A model generated the notes under the pieces. It saw nothing but the letters and a program-made list of their open reading frames with translations. It searched no databases and had not been told where the DNA came from. The translations under genes and the position numbers were made by a program. DNA of 40,168 nt from a virus, in IMG/VR virus record IMGVR_UViG_3300008219_003764, positions 1-40,168 of that record; one strand, written 5' to 3'. This document shows, one piece after another, positions 1-5,673 of this stretch (positions are counted from its first letter, which is position 1; each line of letters starts with the position of its first letter).

Positions 1-278
1 ACTCAGACCCTTACGAAAAATCTCAAATGCCGGGAGAAACACTGCTCGTTCCCATGATCTTAAGAATTCACGCAGACCAAATTCTTGCCGCGATGGTTGC
101 CGTGGAACCAGAAAACAAAGATGCAGTGATGAAGGCGGTGTACAAAGTGTTGTCGAGTGACAACTCAGATGAAGAATATTCGACCGTGACCATGCACGAT
201 GTCAATTTGAGTCTTGAAGAAGCGATTGCGTTTTCCAATGACCGGGAAAGGCCCACGAATGATGAGGATCTACATTGA
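1..278 (+). CDS. Unknown protein, C-terminal part (5' end outside window)
   Basis: The reading frame is open from the first bases of the window, so the gene probably begins upstream. In-frame ATGs at 27 and 54 are possible starts, but neither has a well-placed ribosome binding site (a GGGAG at 32-36 is too far from 54). The visible part is acidic and soluble, with no membrane segment, and ends in a very acidic tail. I recognise no family. Its TGA overlaps the TTG start of queD (TTGA at 275-278), so it belongs to the same operon as the deazaguanine genes and is probably translationally coupled to them. The visible end shows no PP-loop ATPase motif, so it cannot be called QueC from what is here. 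Confidence 0.55.
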   Translation, partial: SDPYEKSQMPGETLLVPMILRIHADQILAAMVAVEPENKDAVMKAVYKVLSSDNSDEEYSTVTMHDVNLSLEEAIAFSNDRERPTNDEDLH

Positions 279-718
279 GTTCACAAGAACCGACCTGCAC
301 AAGGAAGCTCGAGTTTGACGCAGGACATAGGCTGATAAATCACGGAGGCAAGTGTGAACATTACCACGGACACCGGTATGTGGTTGAGTTGACTTGCTGC
401 GTAGCGGAAGACGGCTCTCTTGACGGCATTGGTAGGGTAGTAGACTTCTCCGTCATAAAAGAACTGTTTGGCTCGTGGATAGACCTCAATTTGGACCACG
501 GGATGATCTTGCATGAAGACGACGATTTGGCAGACGCTTTTCTTGAGCGAAGCATGAAAGTATTCATCATGGAATGCAATCCAACAGCCGAAAATATGGT
601 AAAACTTCTGTTTTCAACGGCTTCGGATCTGTTCTCCAAGGACAATACCGGCGTTGAGATCAAGTCAGTCCGTCTGTATGAAACCCCAAACTGCTGGGCT
701 GACTACCCTGTGTCTTAA
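275..718 (+). CDS. queD: 6-carboxy-tetrahydropterin synthase QueD
   Basis: QueD converts dihydroneopterin triphosphate to 6-carboxy-5,6,7,8-tetrahydropterin, the second step from GTP to 7-deazaguanines. The 147-residue protein shows the T-fold family pattern: FDAGHRL (His18), Cys27 in GGKCEHYHGHRY with His31 and His33 completing the zinc triad, LDHGMIL (His74), PTAENM (103-108) and a C-terminal ETPNCWADY with Glu136. Length fits the family. The start is a TTG inside the upstream stop (TTGA), with GAGG at 264-267 as ribosome binding site; no in-frame ATG lies before the conserved motif. Followed by a short gap and queE. Confidence 0.93.
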   Translation: MSSQEPTCTRKLEFDAGHRLINHGGKCEHYHGHRYVVELTCCVAEDGSLDGIGRVVDFSVIKELFGSWIDLNLDHGMILHEDDDLADAFLERSMKVFIMECNPTAENMVKLLFSTASDLFSKDNTGVEIKSVRLYETPNCWADYPVS

Positions 719-866: not shown

Positions 867-1547
867 ATGGACGAGAACAAAACGTACGCGATTAAAGAAG
901 TGTACTTTTCAATTCAAGGCGAGGGTGCTTATTCGGGCTGTCCCGTGGTGTTCGTCCGGTATGCGGGGTGTAACGTATGGACGGGGCGCGAAGAGGACCG
1001 CAAGCGGAACGTAGAGAAGGGCCGTTGTGCGTTGTGGTGTGACACGGATTTTGTGGGTACAGATGGTCCACTTGGAGGCAAATACACGGCATCGGAACTG
1101 GCTCACACGATAAGGAAGCTGTGGCCCAACAACAGCGAAGCCACTGCGGTAATGACTGGTGGGGAACCGTCGCTTCAAATCGACACGGAACTTGTGAAAC
1201 AAATGACTAGGCACGCAATTCGAGTCCACGTCGAAACAAATGGTTCGAATGAGCTTCCAAAGGAAGTGGCTTGGGTGACATTGAGCCCAAAGCCCCCAAT
1301 GCCGTTTGTTCCTCAGCGTTATGATGAGTTGAAAGTCGTTTGCCCAGAGTTCGACCCATTGGAATTGAACACGCAAGTTGAAACGCTTTGCGGACCCGAG
1401 CACATTTCACACAAGTACATCCAACCCCAGTGGGATGTTGATCCACGCATTTCAAGCGACAACACCGCACAGTGCATTGAGTTTTTGAAAAACAACACCG
1501 ATTGGAGACTTTCAGTCCAAACACACAAGTTCATTGGGTTGCCATGA
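867..1547 (+). CDS. queE: 7-carboxy-7-deazaguanine synthase QueE (radical SAM)
   Basis: QueE rearranges 6-carboxy-tetrahydropterin to 7-carboxy-7-deazaguanine (CDG) with a 4Fe-4S cluster and S-adenosylmethionine. The 226-residue protein has the family N-terminus (YFSIQGEGAYSG, 13-24), the cluster-loop start RYAGCNVWTGREEDR, then WCDTDFVGTDG (57-67), MTGGEPSLQ (96-104), HVETNGS and a YIQPQWD near the C-terminus. Candidate cluster cysteines are 35, 54 and 58, giving CX18CX3C, whereas well-studied QueE proteins of this class have CX14CX2C; the bases clearly encode this spacing. Start ATG has TTGGAGTG upstream. Its stop overlaps the folE start (ATGA at 1544-1547). Confidence 0.92.
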   Translation: MDENKTYAIKEVYFSIQGEGAYSGCPVVFVRYAGCNVWTGREEDRKRNVEKGRCALWCDTDFVGTDGPLGGKYTASELAHTIRKLWPNNSEATAVMTGGEPSLQIDTELVKQMTRHAIRVHVETNGSNELPKEVAWVTLSPKPPMPFVPQRYDELKVVCPEFDPLELNTQVETLCGPEHISHKYIQPQWDVDPRISSDNTAQCIEFLKNNTDWRLSVQTHKFIGLP

Positions 1548-2086
1548 ACGAATCGATCATAAAAGGAGCCGTTGAAGCGATGTTGTCTCAAATCCCACAC
1601 AATGGGGTTGAAGGCACTCTTGAAACGCCAGATCGAGTCGCTCGAATGTGGAAGGAGTTCGAGGCGAGATCAGACTTTAATTTGACGACGTTTCCTGCAA
1701 ACGGCACAGATGAAATGATCGTTTGTTCGGAGATAATGTTCTATTCGTTCTGTGAGCATCATTTGCTTCCATTTTTCGGCACTGCGGTGGTCGCGTACAT
1801 TCCAGATCCAAGTGGAAAGATATGCGGGTTGAGCAAGCTAGCTCGAGTAGTGGACAAGTTTTCACTAAGGCCGCAAACGCAAGAATATCTCACAAATCAA
1901 ATCGCGGACTACCTTTACAACCAACTGGCACCACTCGGTGCTGGAGTTGTGTTGCAAGCAGAACACTTGTGTATGTCCATGCGAGGCGTCCAGAGAACCG
2001 GCGCACAAACAACAACATCGGCACTCAGGGGGTGCATGAAAGAAGATGCGGCTTGCAGGTCAGAATTCCTGCACATCGCTTTTTGA
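1544..2086 (+). CDS. folE: GTP cyclohydrolase I FolE
   Basis: FolE opens GTP to dihydroneopterin triphosphate, the entry step for deazaguanine (and folate) synthesis. The 180-residue protein is family length. It carries the zinc ligands Cys70 and His73 in FCEHHLLPF and Cys143 in EHLCMSMRGVQ, plus GLSKLARVVD (95-104), the QEYLTNQIADYL helix and the conserved RGVQ...T-rich stretch. The ATG at 1544 overlaps the queE stop by four bases, so I prefer it to an upstream in-frame TTG at 1502. A phage copy beside queD and queE most likely raises precursor supply for DNA modification rather than folate. Confidence 0.93.
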   Translation: MNESIIKGAVEAMLSQIPHNGVEGTLETPDRVARMWKEFEARSDFNLTTFPANGTDEMIVCSEIMFYSFCEHHLLPFFGTAVVAYIPDPSGKICGLSKLARVVDKFSLRPQTQEYLTNQIADYLYNQLAPLGAGVVLQAEHLCMSMRGVQRTGAQTTTSALRGCMKEDAACRSEFLHIAF

Positions 2087-2110
2087 CGATCTGACAGCAA
2101 GGAGGAACAT

Positions 2111-3097
2111 TTGTCTGGCGACCTGAAATACCTACAAGACACACTTGCCATTTACTACAGCCATAATTGCGAAAGAAGAGCTTTGCCTTGGCGAACACCG
2201 GACTGTCCACCGGATGTGTTTTTCATGTCTTTGGCTCTTCTTGAGTACACGGACACACCGGTACTTGAATCAGAGTTCAAGGGCATTTTCACCGGAATTT
2301 CAACGTTTGGCGACTGGCTTAAGCTGACACCTGAAGCCCAGAAAAACCGCCTGAGCAACCTCCCACTTCCGTGGTATCAGAGATCAATCGTCACTTCCGT
2401 CGCGATGTGGCTGGATGGGGAAATAGGCGTTCCAGCATCCAAGTCTTCATTTGACTGGGGGTCTGCAATACCTCTGATCAAAATGGCTCGTGGTGAAACC
2501 GACACTCCACCACCAACGGATGCTCACATAATCAGGGTTGCGAGTAGGCTGAAAGGCGATCCAAAGCGATTCTTGGCGTCATTGACGATGACAAGGCATC
2601 GCAACTACGACCTGATGATCGCGCTGAAAGACATTGGCGAACTGGTTTGCCACAACACAACTCCAGCTTGCTTGGAATGCCCATTGAGCCAAGGTTGTGA
2701 ATATTCAAAAACCGACGAACACACTTCGATAACAGTCAGGTTCCAAGCCGTTGGTTTCCATCATTGGCCGGATGCCCCAGATGAAGTCATGTATTTGAGG
2801 AAAAATCATCGGCATTTGTTCAAATGCTCCGCGACGGTTCCGATTTTGAAATCGCGTCAAATCGAATTCCACATACTCCAGTCATGCTGTGACGATCTTT
2901 TGTGCAAAACGCTCAACAACATTTTTGAAACTGCGTCGTGCGAAGAGATTGGGAACGCCTTGGCATCTGCAATTTGCTCTGAATTTCCAGAAATTCCGTG
3001 GGTTCGCGTAACGGTTTCGGAAGATGGAGAAAACGACGCGACAGTCCGTCACTTTCAAGAGAGGAACAATGTTCACGTCCAAGCGCAAATCACCTGA
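2111..3097 (+). CDS. Endonuclease III/MutY-like 4Fe-4S protein fused to a T-fold-like domain
   Basis: Residues 1-200 follow the HhH-GPD DNA glycosylase plan: ALPWR (24-28, as in MutY), DAHIIRVASR (137-146, like the catalytic-Asp helix of endonuclease III, Asp137), and a 4Fe-4S loop C180-X6-C187-X2-C190-X5-C196, identical in spacing to endonuclease III. The hairpin that normally precedes the Asp helix (LPGVGRKTA in E. coli) is not recognisable, and the MutY catalytic Glu position appears to be Leu. Residues 207-312 look like a separate domain: FQAVGFHHWPDAP, NHRHLFKC, then SCEEI and TVSEDGEN. This order of His-rich strand, helix and acidic end resembles QueD-type T-folds and a family I remember from actinophages. 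TTG start with a strong AGGAGG five bases upstream. It may remove or process bases rather than repair DNA; function uncertain. Confidence 0.7.
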   Translation: MSGDLKYLQDTLAIYYSHNCERRALPWRTPDCPPDVFFMSLALLEYTDTPVLESEFKGIFTGISTFGDWLKLTPEAQKNRLSNLPLPWYQRSIVTSVAMWLDGEIGVPASKSSFDWGSAIPLIKMARGETDTPPPTDAHIIRVASRLKGDPKRFLASLTMTRHRNYDLMIALKDIGELVCHNTTPACLECPLSQGCEYSKTDEHTSITVRFQAVGFHHWPDAPDEVMYLRKNHRHLFKCSATVPILKSRQIEFHILQSCCDDLLCKTLNNIFETASCEEIGNALASAICSEFPEIPWVRVTVSEDGENDATVRHFQERNNVHVQAQIT

Positions 3098-4199
3098 AAA
3101 AATAGTGTACGTCGGCATTGAAGAGATCCCGTCGAGGTACTGCAAACATTTCAACGAGAGAATTTTAGAATCGCTTGGCAATCTGAAAGGTGTGGATGTC
3201 GCTTCAGTCACCCCGAGCTATATGTCAGAAGCCCTTGAATCACATGAGTTTTTGAGCGCAACCGGAACAATCAAATACAAAAGCAAACAAATTTCATTGC
3301 TTTGCTCGATGATACAAACCGGAGAAGTTTCAAGCGGGGATGTGATTTTGCTGGGGGACGGATGGTTCCCCGGCATCGAAGGCGTTGCTTATGCGGCGCA
3401 AATGAAAGGAATCGAACTCCATTTCGACGCCATCCTCCATGCCGGGTCATGGACAGCAAGCGATTCCGTGGCGTCGATGTCCAGAAAAACAAATGGCGAG
3501 TGGGTTAGTTGCTTCGAACGCACGTTCCTTCAACTGTTCCGGCACATCTACGTTGGAACGAACCACCACAAGCGAGAGCTTTGCCATGAACACTGGAGGG
3601 TTAACAAGTCAGGCATTGACCGAAAGGTCCATGCCACCGGATTGCCGTTCCACACGGACGACCACGTTGCTGCCAAGAGGATGCCAGCAGACGACAGGCA
3701 ACCGTTGATTGTGTTCACGGGTCGCGATCACCCCGAAAAACGCCAGACCGACGCAGTGAAATGGGCGAAACGAGCGATTCAGATCGCCGGTAGGGGCGAA
3801 TTCGTCTGGACCATGCAAGCGGGTCCAAATGGGGGTCCCTTGGACCGACCCGATTATTTGAACCTTCTTGGCAAGGCGACGTGCTGGATTTCGTTGGCGA
3901 AGCAAGAGAACTTTGGATACTCATGCTTGGAAGCGGCGCTGAATGGAGCTCTTCCAATCGCACCAAACAACAAATCTTATCCAGAGGTCCTTCCGCAAAT
4001 TCTCAATGACACGTTGAGTGAAAGGTACCCGTTTTTGTATGAAGAAAAGCAACAAGCCCTCAACATGATGATTGAGTGTTTGAAGGGAGAGAGACGTGTT
4101 GTTGATTTCAGAGATGATGTGATGAGGAAATACTGGTGGCGAGATCATGAAGCGGCGTCTTCAAAAATAGCTTCAATTTCAGCGGGGATTACGGAATGA
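3069..4199 (+). CDS. GT-B (family 4-like) glycosyltransferase
   Basis: A 376-residue protein. The C-terminal half matches the donor domain of retaining GT-B enzymes: LIVFTGRDHPEKR (213-225), a basic stretch suited to nucleotide-sugar binding, then ATCWISLAKQENFGYSCLEA with the family E-X7-E pair (Glu280, Glu288), followed by GALPIAPN. The N-terminal half has alternating hydrophobic strands (KIVYVGIEE, VILLGDGWFPG) as in acceptor domains. No membrane segment, so it is cytoplasmic. The ATG at 3069 is preceded by GAGAGGAAC and lies inside the end of the upstream gene; an ATG at 3024 lacks such a site. Position between the glycosylase fusion and dpdA suggests the acceptor could be a modified base in DNA; a cell-surface target cannot be excluded. 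Confidence 0.75.
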   Translation: MFTSKRKSPEKIVYVGIEEIPSRYCKHFNERILESLGNLKGVDVASVTPSYMSEALESHEFLSATGTIKYKSKQISLLCSMIQTGEVSSGDVILLGDGWFPGIEGVAYAAQMKGIELHFDAILHAGSWTASDSVASMSRKTNGEWVSCFERTFLQLFRHIYVGTNHHKRELCHEHWRVNKSGIDRKVHATGLPFHTDDHVAAKRMPADDRQPLIVFTGRDHPEKRQTDAVKWAKRAIQIAGRGEFVWTMQAGPNGGPLDRPDYLNLLGKATCWISLAKQENFGYSCLEAALNGALPIAPNNKSYPEVLPQILNDTLSERYPFLYEEKQQALNMMIECLKGERRVVDFRDDVMRKYWWRDHEAASSKIASISAGITE

Positions 4200-5017
4200 A
4201 AGTTTACTTTGCTGGTGGCGGGCAGGAGTCCGAGCCAATGATTGCAGAAGCAATCAACCAAAACCCGGACTTGCTAGGGCGGCTTGGGAGCCCATTGGCA
4301 GAAAAAAACATCGAGATAGACCTCTATGACGGGGCAGATTTCGTTTTGGATTCCGGGGCACACACGCTGATCAATGTTTACGGGTCTGATGCTTGGAGAC
4401 GGCATACGCCGACAAAACCAAGAACCAAAGTTCCAAAAGTGCGTGACACGTTCGACAAGTTGAAAAAACTTGCCCGCAAAATGAAAGGGCAACTTCTCTG
4501 GGTTGCCGAACTGGACATCTACGCTCTCATCCCATACGGGCTTGTTCTGGAAATGAGAAAAGAGCTTCAAGACGAAGGTCATCGCGTATTGCCCGTTTGG
4601 CACAGCATCATTCCAAACGCTTACAAGGTGTGGGATGAATGGCTGGAAGAGTTCGACTACGTTGGGTTTACCAACGACGGGTTGAAAGACGCGCCGGCTA
4701 TGGTAATGCGGGCGTATGACGCTGGCGTCAAAGTTCATGGGTTCGCAATCACCAAGACGGAAGTGTGGTATCGAGCGCCTTTGTATTCAGCGGATTCAAC
4801 GACGTGGACGAATCCTTACAAGTACGGACTCGTTGCGGACCCACGAGGAAAGTTCCAAGTTGGGAAAAGGTGGCATCCGAGCAAAGCAACGGCAAAGAGG
4901 AGGCTATCTAGAAACAGGGCGCACGATTGCGTTCCGATGGTTATCAGAAAGTACACGCAGATGGCGAGAGAAATAACTGAATTTTGGGACAGGAAAGGTG
5001 TGTCATGGGAACAGTAA
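4196..5017 (+). CDS. dpdA: DpdA-type DNA guanine transglycosylase
   Basis: The DpdA family (relatives of tRNA-guanine transglycosylase) exchanges guanine in phage DNA for a 7-deazaguanine. The 273-residue protein shows the shortened TGT plan seen in phage members: VLDSGAHTL (50-58, equivalent of TGT DSGGFQ), WVAELDIYAL (102-111), PVWHSI (133-138), YVGFTNDG, HGFAITKTEVW and a C-terminal YSADSTTW (197-204). Asp52 and Asp200 would be the general base and nucleophile. Start ATGA overlaps the glycosyltransferase stop. The neighbouring folE, queD and queE supply its likely substrate or the precursor. I cannot assign the DpdA subfamily by eye. Confidence 0.82.
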   Translation: MKVYFAGGGQESEPMIAEAINQNPDLLGRLGSPLAEKNIEIDLYDGADFVLDSGAHTLINVYGSDAWRRHTPTKPRTKVPKVRDTFDKLKKLARKMKGQLLWVAELDIYALIPYGLVLEMRKELQDEGHRVLPVWHSIIPNAYKVWDEWLEEFDYVGFTNDGLKDAPAMVMRAYDAGVKVHGFAITKTEVWYRAPLYSADSTTWTNPYKYGLVADPRGKFQVGKRWHPSKATAKRRLSRNRAHDCVPMVIRKYTQMAREITEFWDRKGVSWEQ

Positions 5018-5673
5018 GCAATATCAATGTGATCAAAGTTGACATCAACGAACTAAGACCGAACTCGTGGAATCCAAATCAAATGGACCATGAAATCTAC
5101 GAAAAAGAGCGCGAGAGCTTGGAGAAGTTCGGATACGTTCAGCCCATTACCGTCAGGCAAGTCGAGGAGTCTGCCGGGTTCGAAATCATCGACGGGTTCC
5201 ACCGTTGGAAACTGTTGAAGGAACTCGGATGGGAAGATGTCGAAGTGAACACACTCGGCAAGATAAGCGAGTCGCAAGCCAAGCAATTGACGTTGATCTT
5301 GAATCATCTTCGCGGCGAACCAGATCAAATCATGCTCGCAAAGCTGGTGGAAAACATTCAAGCAATGGATGCAGACGCACTGTTCCCGTTTTTGGAAGAT
5401 GAGTTGGACGCACTTTCAGCAATTGCAGACTTAAGCGATGCGGACATCAACCCGAATCAAGTTGGCGCAGGGGAGTTGGAAGGCCAAGCATTGGAAAACG
5501 ATCTCATTCCACTGCACATGGAACTACCTCGAGAACTGTATGAAAAGTACGTCAATGCGCGACTTAAGATTTGCGAAGAGGGAAGTACGCTGAAAGACCA
5601 TTTGACGCCGGATGAAACGGCGATTGCTGGCTTGTTGTCGGCATGGGCCGTTGCGTCTGGAACGACGGACTAA
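5005..5673 (+). CDS. ParB/sulfiredoxin-fold domain protein
   Basis: A 222-residue protein whose first 80 residues match the ParB N-terminal (ParB/Srx) fold: DINELRPNSWNPN, SLEKFGYVQPITVR, and IIDGFHRWKLLKELG (61-75), the equivalent of the ParB box II GEHRW. The rest is acidic and helical, without the helix-turn-helix of chromosomal ParB. Start ATG at 5005 has AGGAAAGG (4991-4998) upstream and overlaps the dpdA end by 13 bases. ParB-fold proteins occur in phage base-modification neighbourhoods, where they may be nucleases or NTP-dependent DNA binders; which applies here is unknown. The gene ends in a four-base overlap with the convergent tail-fibre gene, and I see no hairpin terminator between them. 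Confidence 0.75.
   Translation: MGTVSNINVIKVDINELRPNSWNPNQMDHEIYEKERESLEKFGYVQPITVRQVEESAGFEIIDGFHRWKLLKELGWEDVEVNTLGKISESQAKQLTLILNHLRGEPDQIMLAKLVENIQAMDADALFPFLEDELDALSAIADLSDADINPNQVGAGELEGQALENDLIPLHMELPRELYEKYVNARLKICEEGSTLKDHLTPDETAIAGLLSAWAVASGTTD

What the first reader, a model, noticed from the sequence alone, without database searches (positions are those of the whole stretch)
2111..3097. Endonuclease III-like 4Fe-4S domain with a missing hairpin, fused to a QueD-like domain
The 4Fe-4S cysteine spacing (CX6CX2CX5C) and the catalytic-Asp helix DAHIIRVASR match endonuclease III/MutY. However, the DNA-gripping helix-hairpin-helix is not recognisable and the MutY Glu site is Leu. The C-terminal 105 residues have a His-rich strand, NHRHLF and SEDGEN in T-fold order. 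I do not know of this fusion. It could excise a base, hold a modified base, or couple base removal to deazaguanine chemistry.
Basis: partly seen in the sequence, partly recalled or inferred. Interest (0 to 1): 0.75.

Follow-up and report, generated by a model that had tools for sequence, protein, structure and literature searches.

The report
Glycosylase-fold and T-fold DNA-modification fusion
A phage gene in a 7-deazaguanine DNA-modification operon joins a decayed MutY-type DNA-repair domain to a QueD-fold enzyme of that pathway, in a combination found in no other virus sampled here and suggesting that the second enzyme may be brought to bases inside DNA.

Summary
ORF 2111-3097 is one 328-residue protein (TTG start behind AAGGAGG; identical in three other assemblies of the same phage). 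Residues 1-200 are a MutY/MIG-type HhH-GPD domain keeping the 4Fe-4S cysteines (C180/187/190/196) and catalytic-Asp helix (D137). It has lost the MutY Glu (L41) and about five hairpin residues that its nearest phage homologues retain. Its model matches MIG and MutY, with the caveat that MutY rows were in the alignment. Residues 206-315 are a confident T-fold (best PDB match QueD) but not QueD: they belong to phrog_17812, usually a stand-alone gene beside folE/queE/queD, with no clear queC in most genomes checked. QueD's catalytic Cys is replaced by an invariant Leu. Context points to tailoring of 7-carboxy-7-deazaguanine, most likely the decarboxylase called DpdL (recalled, not verified). The HhH-GPD fusion was seen in this phage only, in none of 231 other loci; elsewhere the T-fold is fused to DpdA, PIG-L-like or HNH domains. 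Best reading: the glycosylase fold is a non-excising DNA- or base-binding module that brings the T-fold enzyme to DNA. New variant of a known kind; mechanism inferred.

The parts
2099..2105 (+). ribosome-binding site AAGGAGG, 5 nt before the TTG start
   Evidence: sequence
2111..3097 (+). fusion gene, 328 aa, stop included
   Evidence: open frame, identical in L001, L002, L003
2111..2710 (+). N-terminal MutY/MIG-like HhH-GPD domain, residues 1-200
   Evidence: NCBIfam mutY E 9e-7; phage homologues L253, L260, L258; AF2 pLDDT 83.7 and Foldseek to 1kea and 1kg2
2231..2233 (+). Leu41 at the position of the MutY/MIG catalytic Glu
   Evidence: alignments A6 and A9
2435..2488 (+). degenerate helix-hairpin-helix, residues about 109-126, shortened by about 5 residues
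   Evidence: alignment A9; pLDDT below 50 at residues 109-114
2519..2521 (+). Asp137, the retained catalytic-Asp position
   Evidence: invariant in A6 and A9
2648..2698 (+). 4Fe-4S loop C180-x6-C187-x2-C190-x5-C196
   Evidence: invariant in A6 and A9
2726..3055 (+). C-terminal T-fold domain, residues 206-315 (phrog_17812 family)
   Evidence: PHROG E 8.5e-15; AF2; Foldseek QueD
2759..2815 (+). Zn-type His triad H217, H233, H235
   Evidence: invariant in alignments A3 and A4
2855..3022 (+). other invariant pocket residues R249, E252, S276-C277-E278, E304
275..718 (+). QueD
   Evidence: PTPS E 1.1e-28
867..1547 (+). QueE
   Evidence: TIGR04508 E 2.7e-60, below cut-off
1502..2086 (+). FolE
   Evidence: PF01227 E 8e-57
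3069..4199 (+). GT4-type glycosyltransferase, conserved companion of the T-fold family
   Evidence: PF00534 E 4.6e-4, below cut-off; conserved neighbour; profile matches solved group 1 glycosyltransferases
4196..5017 (+). DpdA-like DNA guanine transglycosylase
   Evidence: phrog_887 E 2.7e-17

Best explanation
The gene encodes a base-tailoring enzyme of the phage's 7-deazaguanine DNA-modification pathway. Shown by comparison: the operon has FolE, QueD, QueE and a DpdA-like transglycosylase but no detectable QueC, so on established pathway knowledge its last soluble base should be 7-carboxy-7-deazaguanine (CDG). The C-terminal T-fold belongs to a phage family that nearly always sits with these genes, keeps the Zn-type His triad and pocket glutamates of the T-fold, and lacks QueD's catalytic Cys. 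Inferred: it alters the CDG carboxylate, most likely decarboxylation to 7-deazaguanine (the step called DpdL). Inferred: the N-terminal MutY/MIG fold no longer excises bases; it binds DNA, or an extrahelical deazaguanine, and holds the T-fold at DNA so that tailoring occurs on or next to DpdA's product. MutY's Glu protonates N7 of the purine; 7-deazaguanine has no N7, so loss of that Glu fits a change from excising to holding.
For: T-fold fold and family; FolE in 54, QueE in 39 and any of FolE/QueE/QueD/DpdA in 57 of 59 family loci with full flanks; no QueC in the window, its 63-kb sister contig and 10 of 12 named phages at the reporting threshold, the other two giving short partial matches; the same T-fold is fused to a DpdA-like domain in L226 and to an HNH/endonuclease VII-like domain in phage MA9V-3. 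N-domain fold and residues; loss of Glu and hairpin relative to its nearest phage homologues.
Against: No biochemical data. The HhH-GPD fusion is known from one phage only, so no selection test is possible. The hairpin, the main DNA-backbone grip, is damaged, which also weakens DNA binding. D137 and the Fe-S loop are kept, as in active glycosylases. The domain arrangement was not modelled with confidence (pTM 0.44). The window T-fold lacks one His that at least 90% of members have. The DpdL name rests on memory.
Confidence: 0.42

Rival explanations
1. The N-domain is a vestige: a phage MutY-like repair gene became joined to the T-fold gene and is decaying. The protein works as an ordinary stand-alone T-fold enzyme on free CDG before DpdA inserts it.
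For: Loss of Glu and hairpin; the T-fold is stand-alone in most of 231 other loci; the nearest N-domain relatives lie in contigs without folE or dpdA.
Against: Four Cys, D137, R142, R146, D174 and the helical core are all intact in an uninterrupted frame, not what long neutral decay gives.
Confidence: 0.25
2. The N-domain is still an active glycosylase with altered chemistry that removes a wrong or unmodified base, coupled to deazaguanine handling.
For: D137 and the Fe-S loop are conserved; best solved match is the MIG thymine-DNA glycosylase.
Against: Glu replaced by Leu and hairpin shortened; DpdA-type transglycosylases already exchange bases without leaving abasic sites.
Confidence: 0.12
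3. The T-fold is not a decarboxylase but prepares the deazaguanine for glycosylation by the neighbouring glycosyltransferase, giving a sugar-bearing base.
For: A homologue of the window's glycosyltransferase is near the T-fold in 40 of 59 loci, often as the next gene; PIG-L-like + T-fold fusions in L036, L201, L209 and L228.
Against: About a third of loci show no such glycosyltransferase nearby, including Cellulophaga phage phiST. PIG-L matches are weak (E 0.002-0.006). I know of no glycosylated DNA deazaguanine.
Confidence: 0.25

Closest known systems
MutY adenine glycosylase / MIG thymine-DNA glycosylase (HhH-GPD superfamily, 4Fe-4S class)
   Same: helical fold, PWR motif, catalytic-Asp helix, CX6CX2CX5C cluster loop
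   Different: no catalytic Glu, hairpin shortened, no MutY C-terminal 8-oxoG-reading domain but a T-fold in its place
phrog_17812 T-fold family, probably DpdL (7-carboxy-7-deazaguanine decarboxylase, Cui et al. 2023; recalled, not verified)
   Same: all 52 aligned members including the window match the PHROG; same invariant residues; same gene neighbourhood
   Different: usually stand-alone and about 115-130 aa; the window copy carries a glycosylase fold and lacks one nearly invariant His
QueD / 6-pyruvoyl-tetrahydropterin synthase
   Same: T-fold, Zn-type His triad, C-terminal pocket Glu
   Different: catalytic Cys replaced by an invariant Leu, LDHH motif not conserved, below the Pfam PTPS cut-off; the operon has a separate real QueD
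Glycosylase-type helical domains of phage thymine hypermodification enzymes (5-hmdU DNA kinase and amine-transferase families, Iyer et al. 2013; recalled, not verified)
   Same: works-like precedent: a glycosylase-type fold used in phage base modification without excision
   Different: no Pfam match to those families here; different partner enzyme and different base

Membership tests
MutY/MIG HhH-GPD glycosylase | 4Fe-4S cysteine loop CX6CX2CX5C | tested here: met
   C180/C187/C190/C196 invariant with MutY/MIG
MutY/MIG HhH-GPD glycosylase | catalytic Asp after the hairpin | tested here: met
   D137 invariant
MutY/MIG HhH-GPD glycosylase | catalytic Glu (E. coli MutY E37) | tested here: not met
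   L41 in the window; Glu kept in L253, L260, L258
MutY/MIG HhH-GPD glycosylase | helix-hairpin-helix motif and Pfam HhH-GPD match | tested here: not met
   hairpin shortened; no PF00730 match
MutY/MIG HhH-GPD glycosylase | overall fold | tested here: met
   AF2 pTM 0.79, Foldseek 1kea E 3.1e-5, TM about 0.7; MutY rows were in the alignment
MutY/MIG HhH-GPD glycosylase | base excision activity | not testable with these tools
   needs an enzyme assay
QueD/PTPS | T-fold with three His | tested here: met
QueD/PTPS | catalytic Cys and Asp-His pair | tested here: not met
   Cys position is invariant Leu; LDHH not conserved
phrog_17812 | profile match | tested here: met
   E 8.5e-15, 52 of 52 members
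DpdL | sequence match to the published DpdL | not testable with these tools
   paper not held
DpdL | FolE-QueD-QueE-DpdA pathway without QueC | tested here: met
   window operon, no QueC in the 40-kb record and its 63-kb sister; records may be incomplete
DpdL | CDG decarboxylase activity | not testable with these tools
   needs an enzyme assay
glycosylase-type domains of thymine hypermodification enzymes | Pfam match | tested here: not met
   Pfam scan at E up to 10 gave only EndIII_4Fe-2S at 0.11 for residues 1-204

The most novel reading that the evidence does not exclude
The fusion is an in-DNA deazaguanine tailoring enzyme: a retired glycosylase fold flips or holds the deazaguanine placed by DpdA and presents it to a Zn T-fold active site, so the base is altered after insertion rather than before.
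Probability: 0.25. Interest if true: 0.75.

Novelty: new variant of a known kind. Interest (0 to 1): 0.52.

Why it matters
Whether phage 7-deazaguanine tailoring happens on the free base or on DNA is, to my knowledge, not settled for all enzymes; PMC6884629 says so explicitly for Gat-QueC. A natural fusion of the tailoring domain to a DNA-glycosylase fold makes that question directly testable, and would be another case of a repair glycosylase fold reused for base modification. The survey also gives phrog_17812, annotated 'unknown function', a strong pathway assignment.

Tried and rejected
Full-length and N-domain searches of IMG/VR returned only the same phage plus stand-alone T-folds; L248 first looked like an independent fusion but is the same contig as L003. 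A genome-contig search with the N-domain found no relative. Two alignment searches failed for lack of conserved stretches and were replaced by degenerate DNA patterns. MutY-like hits in the 'Listeria phage' and 'Enterococcus phage' records look like bacterial contamination and were not treated as phage relatives. The C-terminal tail of L253 resembles half a T-fold but scores near zero: inconclusive. The first AF2 job left the N-domain unresolved because it had a single sequence there. BFVD gave no viral fold match for the N-domain. The PIG-L profile found nothing at threshold in whole records. A combined alignment of both domains was worse than the separate ones and was not modelled. The published DpdL paper, the 7-deazaguanine review and Iyer 2013 were not held.

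Full report
Observation. The window carries one open frame at 2111-3097(+), 328 aa, with a TTG start 5 nt after AAGGAGG. It lies in a tight operon: QueD 275-718, QueE 867-1547, FolE 1502-2086, this gene, a GT4-type glycosyltransferase 3069-4199, a DpdA-like transglycosylase 4196-5017 and a ParB-like gene 4984-5673. The gene is identical in three other assemblies of the same phage, one of them 63 kb, so the fusion is not an assembly slip. Codon third-position GC is the same in both halves (0.52 and 0.51) and close to that of the neighbours. Internal in-frame TTG codons at 2672 and 2684 exist, but no clear ribosome site precedes them.

N-terminal domain. Residues 163-205 match NCBIfam mutY at E 9e-7, below its cut-off. 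tblastn aligns residues 2-201 to MutY, MIG and related proteins at about 22% identity. A DNA pattern for the MutY iron-sulphur motif found three phage proteins that are true relatives (phmmer E 1e-15, 1e-15, 3e-12): L253, L260 and L258. In the alignment these keep the MutY/MIG Glu (VEGLLAQT, VEGLTAQT, VEGALPRT) and a hairpin (GIGPYT, GVGPYT, GVS-YT). The window has Leu at the Glu position (SLALLEYT, L41) and lacks about five residues of the hairpin (FDWGSAI-----PLIKMARGE). D137, R142, R146, D174 and C180/C187/C190/C196 are invariant. With an alignment of these relatives plus viral-contig MutY/MIG proteins, AlphaFold2 gives pLDDT 83.7 and pTM 0.79, with pLDDT below 50 only at residues 109-114, where the hairpin should be, and at the end. 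Foldseek's best solved matches are thymine-DNA glycosylase MIG 1kea (E 3.1e-5) and MutY 1kg2 (5.0e-5), TM about 0.7. MutY rows in the alignment favour that outcome; the earlier single-sequence model was all-helical but of low confidence. Pfam HhH-GPD (PF00730) does not match. The contigs of the three relatives have no folE or dpdA; L258 sits among Mre11-, Rad50- and RecA-like genes by reading of the ORFs. So the domain probably came from a phage DNA-maintenance gene rather than from deazaguanine phages.

C-terminal domain. Residues 206-312 match phrog_17812 (unknown function) at E 8.5e-15. All 52 aligned members match that PHROG and no Pfam family convincingly. The AF2 model has block pLDDT of about 83-96, and Foldseek gives E. 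coli QueD (2.9e-5) and archaeal PTPS (4.5e-5). Profile comparison with phage QueDs gives E 2.5e-5 at probability 75. Invariant residues are H217, H233 and H235 (Zn-type triad), R249, E252, S276-C277-E278 and E304. QueD's catalytic Cys is replaced by an invariant Leu (L229), and its LDHH motif is not conserved. It is therefore a T-fold enzyme but not QueD. The window copy lacks one His, at position 247, found in at least 90% of members.

Family context. Two DNA-pattern scans and named phages gave 231 loci other than this phage. Of 59 with at least 3.5 kb on both sides, 54 have FolE, 39 QueE, 30 QueD, 40 a homologue of the window's glycosyltransferase, and 57 at least one of FolE/QueE/QueD/DpdA. 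The loci were chosen by the T-fold motif alone, so the neighbours are independent evidence. QueC was not found in the window, in its 63-kb sister, or in most named phages; Vibrio phage D479, one IMG/VR contig and Xanthomonas phage X1 gave short partial matches. On established biochemistry (PMC13329287, PMC6884629), FolE-QueD-QueE without QueC ends at CDG. This context fits the 7-carboxy-7-deazaguanine decarboxylase named DpdL by Cui et al. 2023; that paper was not held, so the identification is from memory and unverified.

Fusions. HhH-GPD + T-fold was seen in this phage only. The T-fold is also fused to a DpdA-like domain (L226), to PIG-L-like domains (L036, L201, L209, L228; weak profile matches), to an HNH/endonuclease VII-like domain (Chryseobacterium phage MA9V-3) and to an unidentified N-terminal part (Vibrio phage Bakedbeans gp176). 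Several partners act on DNA or its bases, which supports action in DNA modification but does not prove that the T-fold works on DNA.

Mechanism. Shown by comparison: pathway membership of the T-fold, the identity of the N-domain, and the loss of its Glu and hairpin. Inferred: CDG decarboxylation, and use of the N-domain as a non-excising module that brings the T-fold to DNA or holds the flipped base. In MutY the Glu protonates N7 of the purine (established mechanism); 7-deazaguanine has carbon there, so loss of the Glu is what one would expect of a domain that binds deazaguanine, although simple decay predicts the same. Rivals are a vestigial N-domain, an altered active glycosylase, and a T-fold that prepares the base for glycosylation.

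Verdict. It is a new variant of a known kind: a new domain combination of two known folds in a known pathway. Interest is moderate because the combination makes the free-base versus in-DNA question testable, but it rests on one phage lineage and on inference for function.

Noticed in passing
window 3069-4199; L006, L007, L018, L036, L085, L096, L201, L228 and others: A GT4-type glycosyltransferase is a conserved neighbour of the T-fold family (40 of 59 loci with full flanks), hinting at sugar-bearing deazaguanine in phage DNA.
   Followed up: partly
L036 1548-2465(-), L201 4841-5734(-), L209 1-588(+), L228 3174-3950(+): The T-fold domain is fused behind a PIG-L-like (de-N-acetylase-like) domain in four contigs; profile matches are weak.
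   Followed up: partly
L226 2151-3254(+): A DpdA-like transglycosylase and the T-fold domain in one reading frame.
   Followed up: partly
L012 4476-5357(+), Chryseobacterium phage MA9V-3; L009 4254-5405(+), Vibrio phage Bakedbeans gp176: Two further T-fold fusions: an HNH/endonuclease VII-like N-terminal part, and an unidentified 250-residue N-terminal part.
   Followed up: partly
L258 3975-4640(-) and 8818-9891(-): A phage contig with a stand-alone MutY-like protein related to the N-domain also encodes an adenylosuccinate synthetase homologue (PF00709 E 8e-49), possibly a PurZ-type 2-aminoadenine enzyme.
   Followed up: no
L020 and hits H82-H92 (Pseudomonas phages Paride, PA5oct, MIJ3 and relatives): These large Pseudomonas phages carry the same T-fold gene; in Paride it lies near a QueE-like gene and a glycosyltransferase homologue, so they too may carry deazaguanine DNA.
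   Followed up: no
L008 7930-8754(+) and L013 5001-5252(+): MutY genes in records named Listeria phage LM 4-11-1 and Enterococcus phage Efs 1-1-1 look like bacterial sequence in unverified phage assemblies.
   Followed up: no
L276 5544-6476(+): In a gut MAG the T-fold is N-terminal in a 311-residue frame with about 180 further residues of unknown kind, next to a DpdA-like gene.
   Followed up: no
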